IMG/VR virus record: IMGVR_UViG_3300006920_000020
Span: 1-42,025 of that record
Source: a virus
Length of the DNA: 42,025 nucleotides
Strand: one strand, 5' to 3'
Position numbers and translations under genes: made by a program. The notes beneath the pieces were generated by a model. It ran no database searches. It saw nothing but the letters and a program-made list of their open reading frames with translations, and was not told where the DNA came from. Each line of letters opens with the position of its first letter. Positions within the stretch are counted from its first letter, which is position 1. Shown here piece by piece: positions 19,925-29,428 of this stretch.

Positions 19925-20458
19925 ATGTCAAGTACAAAAGTAATCACAGGAAAAGTCCGTTTTAGTTACGCTCACGTATTCGAGCCGAGTGCTATAAACG
20001 AAGGGGACGACAAAAAATATAGTGTATCTATATTGATCCCAAAAACTGACACGGCAACACTTGCCAAAATCAACAAGGCCGTAGAGGCTGCGAAACAAGA
20101 AGGGAAAGGAAAATGGAATGGTAAAATACCACCCGTTTTAAAATTACCTTTAAGAGACGGAGACGCGGAACGTCCAGACGACGAAGCGTACGAAGGTATG
20201 ATGTTTTTAAATGCAAGTTCTAAAAACAAGCCTGGTATTGTTGACGAAAACCGCGACGAGTTAATGTCGAAAGACGAGTTTTACTCTGGTTGTTGGGGAC
20301 GTGCTTCGGTAAACCTTTACGCTTTTAATGTTAGCGGAAACAAAGGTATCGCCGTAGGACTTAACAACTTACAGAAATTAGAGGACGGAGATCGTCTTTC
20401 TGGTGGAGGTGCATCGGCTGCCGAGGACTTCGGATCTGACGACGATTTGTTAGGATAA
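19925..20458 (+). CDS. ssDNA-binding protein, DUF2815/Enc34-like
   Basis: 177 aa. The N-terminus TGKVRFSYAHVFEPSAI and the KYSVSILIPKTDTATLAKI region match the DUF2815 family, whose member Enc34 binds ssDNA with an OB fold. The C-terminus is acidic (AAEDFGSDDDLLG), like the protein-interaction tail of SSB and T7 gp2.5, which contacts polymerase and nuclease. It follows DUF2800, a pairing widespread in phage replication modules. The 97-base gap upstream has TAGTTTAG (19880-19887), a possible weak -7 box. Confidence 0.85.
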   Translation: MSSTKVITGKVRFSYAHVFEPSAINEGDDKKYSVSILIPKTDTATLAKINKAVEAAKQEGKGKWNGKIPPVLKLPLRDGDAERPDDEAYEGMMFLNASSKNKPGIVDENRDELMSKDEFYSGCWGRASVNLYAFNVSGNKGIAVGLNNLQKLEDGDRLSGGGASAAEDFGSDDDLLG

Positions 20459-20543: not shown

Positions 20544-20629
20544 GGGGTGGTAGCTCAGTTGGTTAGGGCGGTTTTGTTGCAACATTAGAAACAGATTTCA
20601 GGTCGTAGGTTCGAGTCCTACCCGCTCCA
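20544..20629 (+). tRNA. tRNA-like element with alanine-type acceptor and aberrant anticodon arm
   Basis: The 7-bp acceptor GGGGTGG/CCGCTCC, D-arm GCTC/GGGC with an AGTTGGTTA loop and T-arm GTAGG/CCTAC around TTCGAGT are all canonical, with discriminator A. The acceptor has a G3-U70 wobble, the identity mark for alanyl-tRNA synthetase. The anticodon region is 12 nt too long: a GTTTT/GAAAC stem would enclose a 12-nt loop (GTTGCAACATTA, containing TGC) and leave a 12-nt variable arm. It is 86 nt instead of about 74. It may be a degenerate tRNA, one with a short insertion, or a tRNA mimic that belongs to the RNA downstream. CCA is not encoded. Confidence 0.75.
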
Positions 20630-20635
20630 CGAAAA

Positions 20636-21170
20636 GACCCAAAGTAAAATTTAATATTAATTTAATAATGTCGCTAGTTATACTTTAATATAAATTCTTT
20701 GGGTCTAAAATATAGAGTTTGGAATCTCTCGAAATTGGTTAAGGCCCACCAATAAAATAAAAATTACAGCCCCGTTTTAAAATTTAGTTGCACGGACTTA
20801 TATAAGCAAGCAAGGACGCACACTGGTAGGAGGCTTACTCCAATACTCTAATTATTTCGTAGTGCGGAAATTACGCCGTACATATTTACATTTTTGTTTA
20901 TAATGGTTAATCATAGACAGGTTTTTACAGAAGTTCTCAAACTATCTGAGTGAAGCGAGACACTATAATCGGAGCCGTGGAAACAAGTCGTAATATGCAT
21001 CATTTTTTGGAGTAGTTGTAAAACTCCTAACAAGGATTATCCGAGGCCTAAAACTACGGTAAACGGACAGGCAACCCCGACAGAGTTTCCCGTATAATTT
21101 TTGGGTGTAAGGGATGGTAATACTGATACTTAATGTCTATGTGAAGCACTGGACGCCCAATTTATTTTTA
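20636..21170 (+). ncRNA. probable large structured non-coding RNA
   Basis: About 535 bases between SSB and polymerase genes with no ORF of size and a higher GC than other intergenic DNA. Stems seen: GACCCAAAG/CTTTGGGTC at 20636/20697 continued by an imperfect AT-rich stem; ATTGGT/ACCAAT at 20734/20748; GGAG/CTCC at 20829/20838; GTGCGG/CCGTAC at 20862/20876; AGTG/CACT at 20949/20961; GGAGT/ACTCC at 21009/21023; and TTGGGTGT/ACGCCCAA at 21101/21153, followed by TTTATTTTT, which could end the transcript. Size, place in a phage and closeness to a tRNA recall the GOLLD and ROOL classes of large phage RNAs; I cannot match it to a class by eye. The upstream part 20461-20543 also has stems (ACGCTT/AAGCGT). 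Confidence 0.65.
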
Positions 21171-21195
21171 ATCTAATAATTGAAAAAATAAAAAT

Positions 21196-23187
21196 ATGGC
21201 TCATAAATTACACATCGACATCGAGACTTACAGCTCGGTCGATATTACCAAGGCCGGAGCTTATCGATATTGTGAGTCAATAGATTTTGAAATACTTATC
21301 CTTTGTTATGCTCACGACGACCAACCAATCCAAACAATAGACCTTTTACAAGGCGAAAAAATACCACAGGATTTTATCGATGCACTCTTAGACCCGACAG
21401 TCGAAAAACACGCACATAATGCAAATTTTGAACGTAACGGATTCCGTGCAATAGGTTACGACGTTCCGATCGATCAATGGTTTTGCTCTGCGATAAAAGC
21501 GGGATATTGTGGTTTACCTTTAAGTTTGGGCGGAGTTTCTGAGGCCTTGAAATTAGAGGAAAAGGGGAAATTAACGACGGGTAAAGCCTTAATACGATTT
21601 TTTTCATGCCCTATCAAACCGACTAAATCTAACGGGCAAAGAGTCCGAAATTTTCCAATACACGATCCCGAAAAATGGGCAGAGTATAAACGTTACTGTT
21701 TTAATGATGTCGAGGCAGAGAGAGAAATCGGCGTTATACTGAAGGACTACCAAATTACAGAATTTGAAAGACGTAACTATATTCTGGACCAGGAAATAAA
21801 CGACAGGGGTATTTTAATAGATGTCGATTTTGCCGAAAACGCTTACGCCTTAGACCAGATTAATTCCGAAAAGGTAGGCGAACAAATGAAAAAATTAACG
21901 GGTTTAGACAATCCGAACAGTCCGAAACAGTTAAAAGATTGGTTAGGAAACCAAATGCAAAAAGAAATTAAATCACTTGCGAAGGGCGAAATTCCAACAC
22001 TAATTGACGAAGCTGGACCAGGACTTGTCTCGGATGTCTTAAACCTTAGATCGAGAGCCTCTAAAACCTCGATTAAAAAATATGTCGCAATGCAAAATTG
22101 CGTTTGTTATGATGGTAGGGCTCACGGACTTTTCCAATTTTACGGAGCTAATAGGACAGGACGTTGGGCAGGACGTTTAATCCAATTACAAAATTTACCA
22201 CAAAACCACCTGGAGGAACTCGCAAAAGTTAGAGAGGTATTTAAAGACGGAGATTACGAAAACGTATCTATGTTATACCCCGAAGTTTCCTCGACACTTT
22301 CTCAGTTAATCCGTACCGCGTTTATTGCAAAACCCGGACATACTTTCGCCGTTGCCGATTTTAGTGCGATTGAGGCCCGAGTAATTGCCTGGTTAGCGAA
22401 TGAAACTTGGCGTATGGACGTATTTAATTCACACGGTAAAATATACGAGGCGTCGGCGTCTCAAATGTTCGGAATACCAATCGAGAAAATAGACAAGTCC
22501 ACCGAAGAGGGTTCGGCTTTAAGAAATAAAGGAAAAGTCGCAGAACTTGCCTTGGGGTACCAGGGGGCGTTGGGTGCACTTAAACAGATGGGCGGCGAGG
22601 CGATGGGTCTTTCAGATATTGAAATGGAAACCATCGTTAAAAAATGGCGAGGTAAAAGTCCTATGATTGTAAGACTTTGGAAAAGTGTCGAGGGTTACGC
22701 TTTACGAGCACTTAGAAACCCGCACAAAAAATACATTTTAGAACTGTTTAAAGGTTTAGAATTTTACTACGACGGTATTTCACTAACTATAAAATTACCT
22801 TCAGGCAGAAAATTATTTTACAATAATCCAAGGATCAAACCTAACAAATGGGGTCGAGACGCTATCCAATACAAAGGGACGCACCAAATGACGAAAAAAT
22901 GGGGGTGGATTGATTCTTACGGTGGTAAATTTACAGAGAACATCGTCCAGGCCATAGCGAGAGATTTACTTGCTTACTCGATGTTACGTTTAAATGAGGA
23001 AGGTTTTAATATCGTAATGCACGTACACGATGAAGCCGTGGCAGAAATTCCCGACGATGGTAACATCTTCAAAAAGAAAAACGAATTAAATCGAATGTGT
23101 AAAATTATGGGCGAGACAGTACCTTGGGCGAAAACCCTCCCTTTAGTAGCAGACGGATATATCACACCATTTTATAAAAAAGACTAA
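21196..23187 (+). CDS. DNA polymerase, family A, with 3'-5' exonuclease domain
   Basis: 663 aa, replicative polymerase of the phage. Exonuclease domain: D8 and E10 (HIDIETY), the HNANFE block near residue 75, and YCFNDVEAE near 175. Polymerase domain: motif A VADFSAIEAR with D388, motif B RNKGKVAELALGYQ with R443, K447 and Y455, and motif C HVHDEAV with H611 and D612. There is no 5'-3' exonuclease domain. The length is usual for phage PolA of the DUF2800-DUF2815-PolA-VirE module. The next gene starts 6 bases after the stop, indicating one operon. Leader lies directly after the structured RNA. Confidence 0.95.
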   Translation: MAHKLHIDIETYSSVDITKAGAYRYCESIDFEILILCYAHDDQPIQTIDLLQGEKIPQDFIDALLDPTVEKHAHNANFERNGFRAIGYDVPIDQWFCSAIKAGYCGLPLSLGGVSEALKLEEKGKLTTGKALIRFFSCPIKPTKSNGQRVRNFPIHDPEKWAEYKRYCFNDVEAEREIGVILKDYQITEFERRNYILDQEINDRGILIDVDFAENAYALDQINSEKVGEQMKKLTGLDNPNSPKQLKDWLGNQMQKEIKSLAKGEIPTLIDEAGPGLVSDVLNLRSRASKTSIKKYVAMQNCVCYDGRAHGLFQFYGANRTGRWAGRLIQLQNLPQNHLEELAKVREVFKDGDYENVSMLYPEVSSTLSQLIRTAFIAKPGHTFAVADFSAIEARVIAWLANETWRMDVFNSHGKIYEASASQMFGIPIEKIDKSTEEGSALRNKGKVAELALGYQGALGALKQMGGEAMGLSDIEMETIVKKWRGKSPMIVRLWKSVEGYALRALRNPHKKYILELFKGLEFYYDGISLTIKLPSGRKLFYNNPRIKPNKWGRDAIQYKGTHQMTKKWGWIDSYGGKFTENIVQAIARDLLAYSMLRLNEEGFNIVMHVHDEAVAEIPDDGNIFKKKNELNRMCKIMGETVPWAKTLPLVADGYITPFYKKD

Positions 23188-29041: not shown

Positions 29042-29104
29042 ACATATCAAAATAGGGAAGCCGAAAACTATAAAGAGTAGGTAATTTTATAAATATATAA
29101 ATAC

Positions 29105-29428
29105 ATGTACACATTAAGAACAATTAACGACGGAAAAAACGGAGCGGTACTCAACCAAGAATTAGGAGAATGCTACTCAGAAGTAAACCGCTTTGAACAC
29201 CCTGAAAGATTCAGAGAGCTTTTTAAAAAGGTATTCAATAAAAATCACGTTGCTGATTTAGATTCCACGTCTGATACTGATACCCAACAAACTATCGGGT
29301 TTATAATCAGTGCGAACGATAACATAATACCCATAAGTCAGGGATTGGCTAACTACATTATGACAGAGAGCGGCAGAACTTTTGAGAGAGTTAATAAATC
29401 TATGACAAAACAGCGATTCAGTAAATAA
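29105..29428 (+). CDS. hypothetical early protein
   Basis: 107 aa, alone between its own promoter and a strong terminator, so it is a separate, probably highly expressed unit. Beta/alpha character (YTLRTINDGKNGAVLNQELG at the start; TIGFIISANDNIIPISQG in the middle). The C-terminus is basic (KSMTKQRFSK). I recall similar proteins in Bacteroidetes mobile DNA but no function. An early host-takeover role is a guess from its expression layout. Confidence 0.6.
   Translation: MYTLRTINDGKNGAVLNQELGECYSEVNRFEHPERFRELFKKVFNKNHVADLDSTSDTDTQQTIGFIISANDNIIPISQGLANYIMTESGRTFERVNKSMTKQRFSK

What the first reader, a model, noticed from the sequence alone, without database searches (positions are those of the whole stretch)
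20544..20629. tRNA-like element with alanine identity but a broken anticodon arm
Acceptor, D and T arms are canonical and include G3-U70 and A73, sufficient for alanyl-tRNA synthetase in known systems. The anticodon region is 12 nt too long. It lies 6 bases before the structured RNA. It may be a charged mimic that is not a decoding tRNA, in a way that recalls the tRNA-like domain of tmRNA, or a decaying tRNA-Ala.
Basis: partly seen in the sequence, partly recalled or inferred. Interest (0 to 1): 0.75.

Follow-up and report, generated by a model that had tools for sequence, protein, structure and literature searches.

The report
Non-decoding tRNA-like element beside phage RNA
A bacteriophage carries a gene that still folds like the core of a transfer RNA but seems to have lost the part that reads the genetic code, and it sits directly in front of an undescribed structured RNA, so it is more likely a built-in processing or docking module than a working or dying tRNA.

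Summary
Window 20544-20629 matches the Rfam tRNA model (43.2 bits), with complete acceptor, D and T stems, G3.U70 and A73, but 34 nt instead of 22 between canonical positions 27 and 48. It is no sequencing error and no private decay: the same element, in the same place between a gp2.5-like gene and the DNA polymerase gene, is in the isolate Croceibacter phage P2559Y and in a metagenomic phage. Between the two lineages the core changes only in ways that keep pairing, including a compensated D-stem pair and the tertiary Levitt pair (G15-C48 to A15-U48), while the anticodon arm diverges about as much as synonymous sites. No excision of the surplus rebuilds an anticodon arm. The RNA just downstream (about 560 nt, no Rfam match) is itself structured and conserved. 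Best reading: a non-decoding tRNA-shaped module of a bipartite phage noncoding RNA, probably cut by RNase P and tRNase Z, perhaps docked on the next hairpin through ACAUUA/UAAUGU. Charging by AlaRS is plausible but untested. tRNA-like genes with oversize anticodon arms also occur in two other groups of gut phages, so this may be a recurrent, undescribed kind.

The parts
20544..20629 (+). tRNA-like element, 86 nt, no encoded CCA
   Evidence: ARAGORN; Rfam RF00005 43.2 bits; pair count
20544..20550 (+). 5' strand of acceptor stem GGGGTGG, pairs with 20622-20628 (G3.U70 = 20546 with 20626)
20553..20569 (+). D arm; stem pair 13-22 is C-G here, U-A in P2559Y; position 15 = 20558
20571..20604 (+). 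oversize anticodon arm plus variable region, 34 nt (canonical 22); no canonical stem; Levitt partner 48 = 20604
20582..20587 (+). ACATTA, in the conserved block of the otherwise diverged arm; complementary to 20666-20671
20605..20621 (+). T arm, identical in all 3 records
20630..21195 (+). conserved structured noncoding RNA (ends not mapped), no Rfam family
   Evidence: no match; alifold z -5.5
20635..20706 (+). hairpin 1 of that RNA, AGACCCAAAG/CTTTGGGTCT, one compensatory change
20666..20671 (+). TAATGT in the apical part of hairpin 1, possible docking site for ACATTA
21101..21160 (+). 3' hairpin TTGGGTG/CGCCCAA with two compensatory changes in this stem and two in an inner stem
19925..20458 (+). 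upstream gene, gp2.5-like ssDNA-binding protein (phrog_112)
21196..23187 (+). downstream gene, DNA polymerase (phrog_17)

Best explanation
The element is the 5' module of a bipartite phage noncoding RNA: a tRNA-shaped, non-decoding domain directly followed by a structured RNA of about 560 nt. Shown: the tRNA fold, its maintenance in two phage lineages, the lack of a usable anticodon arm, and the structure and conservation of the neighbouring RNA. Inferred: the phage transcribes both together; host RNase P and tRNase Z recognise the acceptor/T/elbow part and cut before 20544 and after 20629, which frees the 5' end of the long RNA; and the rebuilt anticodon loop (ACAUUA) docks on the apical part of the next hairpin (UAAUGU), either before cutting or as a complex of the two products. 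The role of the long RNA itself is unknown.
For: Same element, order and place in P2559Y and IMGVR 3300032373_000042. All paired-site changes between lineages keep pairing: 39 of 39 pairs in 3 of 3 records, 3 pairs changed on both sides, among them D-stem 13-22 and Levitt 15-48. T arm, acceptor 3' strand and A73 are 23/25 identical, positions 1-27 are 23/27, and the next 104 aligned nt 97/104, against 17/34 in the arm and against 37% (79/215) and 56% (33/59) differences at fourfold sites of the flanking genes. The adjacent RNA is structured: alifold z -5.5 overall, hairpin 1 -5.5, 3' hairpin -3.3. It is the only tRNA-type gene found in each of these three records, so it is not part of a tRNA island. 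ACATTA/TAATGT is the longest shared Watson-Crick helix of the arm with the downstream RNA; 5 of 1000 column shuffles of the arm reach it in the apical loop, and 158 of 5000 shuffles in the test on the conserved block alone.
Against: Only two independent lineages, so covariation rests on few events: 21 of 500 shuffles reach the observed score. Many other helices with a compensatory change, most surely chance, exist in the same alignment, including competing partners of the same hairpin-1 bases. The proposed docking bases never vary, so no covariation supports docking; with G.U allowed, 43 of 1000 shuffles reach it, and a 4-bp AUAA/UUAU stem could close the same loop. No transcript, cleavage or promoter evidence was available. 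Conserved G3.U70 is not needed for processing alone. The isolated 86-mer does not favour the cloverleaf by energy, and the long RNA as a single sequence folds no better than its shuffles (z -0.42).
Confidence: 0.48

Rival explanations
1. Charged mimic: after processing and CCA addition the element is alanylated by host AlaRS and acts as Ala-RNA (EF-Tu or synthetase ligand, sink, or another role) without decoding.
For: A73, G2-C71, G3.U70 and G4-C69 all present in 3 of 3 records (determinants from PMC9976931). Acceptor pairs 5-68 and 7-66 switch between G.U and Watson-Crick while 3-70 stays G.U. AlaRS does not need the anticodon (established knowledge).
Against: Two lineages only, so an unchanged G.U pair is weak evidence; U, not G, at position 20 (G20 is a listed bacterial determinant); no CCA encoded; comparable gut-phage tRNA-like genes lack G3.U70 (0 of 4).
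Confidence: 0.22
2. Relic of a captured tRNA-Ala(UGC) that is decaying, starting in the anticodon arm, kept by chance.
For: Counted from the 5' end, the window has U33-UGC-A37 in the exact place of an alanine anticodon (sequence), with alanine acceptor determinants; the arm diverges as much as fourfold sites.
Against: Core paired sites changed without one loss of pairing, with compensation at 13-22 and 15-48; T arm identical; core far more conserved than fourfold sites; arm length 34/35/35 in all three and a conserved AACATTA block.
Confidence: 0.13
3. Working tRNA with an unusual arm: a spliced insert, or a frameshifting four-base anticodon.
For: ARAGORN offers a four-base reading gcaa in both phages. 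The surplus lies near the canonical intron position.
Against: Removing any 12 (13) contiguous bases gives at best 2/5 stem pairs in the window (1955 of 2000 shuffles do as well) and 4/5 in P2559Y with a loop that has no U33. The anticodon at the canonical place differs (UGC against GCA), and loop and stem are not conserved.
Confidence: 0.07
4. The tRNA-like element and the long RNA are one permanent RNA (no cutting), with the tRNA shape as a structural or protein-binding domain, as proposed for Bacillus cereus tRNA-Other.
For: Only a 5-6 nt linker; joint conservation; possible loop-hairpin contact; precedent PMC3399842 (abstract and passages seen).
Against: A canonical acceptor/T domain would be expected to be cut by RNase P and tRNase Z in a bacterium (established knowledge).
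Confidence: 0.1

Closest known systems
Bacillus cereus tRNA-Other (pseudo-tRNA inside larger transcripts; PMC3399842)
   Same: tRNA-like, judged outside translation, found within larger RNA species
   Different: host chromosome and genomic island, has a Trp anticodon and is poorly charged with lysine (paper's words); here a phage gene whose anticodon arm is rebuilt and oversize, with alanine acceptor determinants
GOLLD and ROOL RNAs (large ornate phage/prophage RNAs; PMC12286853)
   Same: large structured phage RNA next to tRNA genes; GOLLD linkers sometimes hold tRNAs (passages seen)
   Different: no match to any Rfam family of this kind even at E up to 10; the neighbouring tRNA-like gene here is single and non-canonical
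tmRNA tRNA-like domain
   Same: alanine identity G3.U70 and A73, no decoding by an anticodon (recalled)
   Different: full D arm and continuous 86-nt unit here; no tmRNA called
tRNA-Ala(UGC)
   Same: acceptor determinants; UGC at 34-36 counted from the 5' end in the window
   Different: no anticodon stem, 12-13 extra bases, anticodon not kept in P2559Y
tRNA punctuation of mitochondrial transcripts (recalled; only search listing seen)
   Same: proposed use of tRNA shapes as cutting signals between neighbouring RNAs
   Different: there the tRNAs also decode

Membership tests
tRNA (structure) | acceptor, D and T stems, T-loop TTCNANT, A14, G18G19, discriminator | tested here: met
tRNA (structure) | Levitt tertiary pair 15-48 | tested here: met
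   G-C in the window, A-U in P2559Y and L004 (window and P2559Y)
tRNA (decoding) | 5-bp anticodon stem and 7-nt loop | tested here: not met
   34-35 nt instead of 22; 2/5 and 3/5 pairs; no excision restores it
tRNA-Ala (charging) | A73, G2-C71, G3.U70, G4-C69 | tested here: met
   present in 3 of 3 records
tRNA-Ala (charging) | alanylation by AlaRS | not testable with these tools
   needs an assay
tmRNA | tRNA-like domain closed over an mRNA-like domain, reduced D arm, tag reading frame | tested here: not met
   no tmRNA in ARAGORN or Rfam; complete D arm
ROOL / GOLLD (for the adjacent RNA) | match to the Rfam covariance models | tested here: not met
intron-containing tRNA | removal of the insert leaves a canonical arm | tested here: not met
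   contiguous excision of all surplus bases at every position
tRNA-like element within a larger RNA (tRNA-Other type) | joint transcription with flanking RNA | not testable with these tools
   needs RACE or RNA-seq

The most novel reading that the evidence does not exclude
A recurrent, undescribed class of phage tRNA-like RNAs that keep the tRNA elbow and acceptor but replace the anticodon arm with a longer loop. In this phage group the module is alanylated and docks through that loop on the first hairpin of a new large phage RNA. Similar oversize-arm elements (maintained cores, unconserved loops) occur in gut phages related to L018/MT835539 and, in another form, in Lak megaphages.
Probability: 0.17. 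Interest if true: 0.82.

Novelty: new variant of a known kind. Interest (0 to 1): 0.56.

Why it matters
If right, phages keep tRNA-shaped RNAs for a use other than decoding, next to large RNAs of unknown role, as with ROOL and GOLLD. Croceibacter phage P2559Y is an isolate with a named laboratory host, so transcription, cutting, charging and binding can be tested directly. It also warns that 'tRNA-???' calls in phage genomes are not all pseudogenes.

Tried and rejected
Intron, simple insertion or four-base anticodon: rejected. Sequencing error: rejected, since an isolate genome and an independent metagenome contig carry the same oversize arm. tmRNA: rejected. Known ornate RNA families: none matched. 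Long-variable-arm (type II) tRNA: reading 27-43 as a normal arm gives no 5-bp stem in either phage (by eye on the sequences).

Searches for further relatives led to little. Six DNA patterns were run on the IMG/VR viral contigs. Four from the long RNA and one gapped pattern for this arm type found nothing beyond P2559Y and 3300032373_000042, window-specific, found none. The pattern for the 5' tRNA half found 8 records: P2559Y, and 7 others in which ordinary tRNAs are called. Exact patterns can miss diverged relatives. In 395 Bacteroidia genomes a 225-base query matched in 80; the listed places cover at most 54 of the 225 bases, most on one or the other tRNA half, a few on the AT-rich hairpin, and none holds the whole element. 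Plasmids: no match. Of 10 IMG/VR records with a related polymerase, 8 had no tRNA-type match; some are fragments. The four related phages fetched whole (L035-L038) and two polymerase loci (L033, L034) gave no R1 match except the ordinary tRNA-Gln of L037. Of three short contigs with a near-identical portal (L028-L030), one gave a 28-base AT-rich match and two none; they do not reach this region. A look by eye for a promoter upstream of the element gave nothing convincing. The protein search gave one long polymerase match, in the genome used as the centre, and otherwise short, weak ones.

Full report
What was checked. The window is a 42,025-base virus record whose genes are those of a tailed phage. 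ARAGORN reports a single tRNA gene in it, 20544-20630, untyped with a four-base reading. Rfam gives RF00005 at 20544-20629, 43.2 bits, E 4.9e-6. The arms are complete (7/7, 4/4, 5/5 pairs), G3.U70 and A73 are present, and the stretch from canonical 27 to 48 has 34 bases instead of 22.

Relatives. The closest records are Croceibacter phage P2559Y (NC_023614, host Croceibacter atlanticus) and IMGVR 3300032373_000042. In both, the element lies between the gp2.5-like gene and the DNA polymerase gene, followed by the same long noncoding stretch (for P2559Y, for both). Nothing is annotated there in P2559Y. The polymerase is 87% identical in protein between the window and P2559Y. More distant phages with a related polymerase lack a tRNA-type match: 8 of 10 IMG/VR records. 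Two annotated ones have a gap of about 160-170 bases at this place instead of more than 700 bases here.

Selection on the tRNA core. Between the window and P2559Y, fourfold-degenerate sites differ by 37% (polymerase, 215 sites) and 56% (gp2.5-like gene, 59 sites). The T arm, acceptor 3' strand and A73 are 23/25 identical, positions 1-27 are 23/27 identical, and the 104 aligned bases after the element are 97/104 identical. The arm region is only 17/34 identical plus one indel. Every change at a paired site keeps the pair. U5.G68 becomes U-A, G7-C66 becomes G.U, U12.G23 becomes U-A, C13-G22 becomes U-A, and the tertiary pair G15-C48 becomes A15-U48. On the whole structure given, 39 pairs in 3 records are all standard, with 3 pairs changed on both sides; 21 of 500 shuffles do as well, so with two lineages this is moderate, not strong, support. 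A compensated change at the Levitt pair is what selection for the folded L shape would give.

The anticodon arm. Counting from the 5' end, the window has U33-UGC-A37 where an alanine anticodon would be, and P2559Y has U33-GCA-A37 because the same motif sits one base earlier (sequences). The opposite stem strand does not pair (2/5 and 3/5). Cutting out all surplus bases as one block, at every position, gives at most 2/5 pairs in the window, which 1955 of 2000 shuffled arms also reach, and 4/5 in P2559Y with a different loop (571 of 2000 shuffles). Splicing and simple insertion are therefore not supported. The longest shared conserved block in the arm is AACATTA.

The neighbouring RNA. Positions 20630-21195 have no Rfam match at E up to 10 except two that are far below their gathering scores, one of them on the tRNA's opposite strand. 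Column-shuffled alignments give alifold z -5.5 for the whole, -5.5 for hairpin 1 and -3.3 for the 3' hairpin; two middle parts are not significant (z -1.4 and 0.0). As a single sequence the RNA does not fold better than its shuffles (z -0.42). Compensatory changes support hairpin 1 and the 3' hairpin. Whole blocks of 70-94 columns are present in one lineage and absent in the other, as would fit a large modular RNA.

Possible contact. ACATTA in the arm (20582-20587) and TAATGT in the apical part of hairpin 1 (20666-20671) are complementary and invariant. The six-pair helix is reached by 5 of 1000 column shuffles of the arm (Watson-Crick only), 43 of 1000 if G.U is allowed, and 158 of 5000 when only the conserved block is tested. 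Because neither side varies, there is no covariation. An alternative five-pair contact with one compensatory change (20584-20588 with 20674-20678) and contacts of the D loop with the same hairpin bases exist. Docking is a hypothesis.

Function. The parts that RNase P, tRNase Z, the CCA-adding enzyme and AlaRS read (acceptor, T arm, elbow; established knowledge) are those kept, and the part the ribosome reads is the one not kept. A non-decoding tRNA-shaped module attached to a larger RNA explains this best. Which consequence matters to the phage (cutting, docking or charging) cannot be settled from sequence. The four acceptor-end alanine determinants tabulated for bacteria (PMC9976931, passages seen) are present; the fifth, G20, is not.

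A wider pattern. The scan for the 5' tRNA half also hit L018, a 180-kb IMG/VR phage with 16 tRNA-type matches. Three of them have oversize arms. Two (84 and 81 nt) recur, flanking the same 119-codon reading frame, in MT835539.1 from human faeces. All four copies have complete acceptor and D stems, 30-33 nt instead of 22 in the arm, unconserved loops and a T stem with 3/5 pairs; the A copies again show 15-48 as G-C against A-U. None of the four has G3.U70. The third (122 nt) recurs in Lak megaphages (115 and 104 nt in Lak-B2 and Lak-A1). These are not homologues of the whole element here: L018 scores with model R1 (at most 44.8 bits) lie among those of ordinary tRNAs, against 195-208 for the three members. 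They do suggest that non-decoding tRNA-like genes are kept in several phages, at least some of them of the same host phylum. The literature searches made returned no paper whose listing describes such elements in phages; most subscription papers are not in that library, and only listings were read except for PMC12286853 and PMC9976931 (passages) and PMC3399842 (abstract and passages).

Verdict. Real, conserved, unlikely to be decay or a decoding tRNA; a new variant of the 'tRNA-like element beside or within a larger RNA' kind, with a testable isolate. Mechanism moderately supported.

Noticed in passing
L018 6402-6485 and 6916-6996 (- strand); L065 1713-1796 and 1203-1283: Two tRNA-like genes with oversize anticodon arms (30-33 nt instead of 22) and a T stem with only 3/5 pairs flank a conserved 119-codon frame in two gut phages; Levitt pair 15-48 is G-C in one A copy and A-U in the other.
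   Followed up: partly
L018 5950-6071 (- strand); L063 308-422; L064 296-399: A 104-122 nt tRNA-like gene with a strongly conserved AAAACACCCAAATCCCAGGGATAAGAGA stretch and a variable insert, shared with Lak megaphages; ARAGORN does not call it.
   Followed up: partly
window 29051-29083: Match to Rfam DUF805b RNA (RF02914, 40.3 bits) upstream of the small reading frame at 29105.
   Followed up: no
window 20755-20764, 20890-20899, 21186-21195: AAATAAAAAT occurs twice, the second copy directly before the polymerase start codon; an ATTTTTGTTT between them could pair with either copy, so the long RNA might bear on polymerase translation. AT-rich, may be chance.
   Followed up: no
window about 20734 and about 20934-21003, against P2559Y: A block of about 94 bases present in P2559Y and L004 is absent from the window's long RNA near 20734, and about 70 bases near 20934-21003 are the reverse.
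   Followed up: no
L002 1725-1812: The P2559Y RefSeq record has no tRNA or noncoding RNA annotated at the element.
   Followed up: yes
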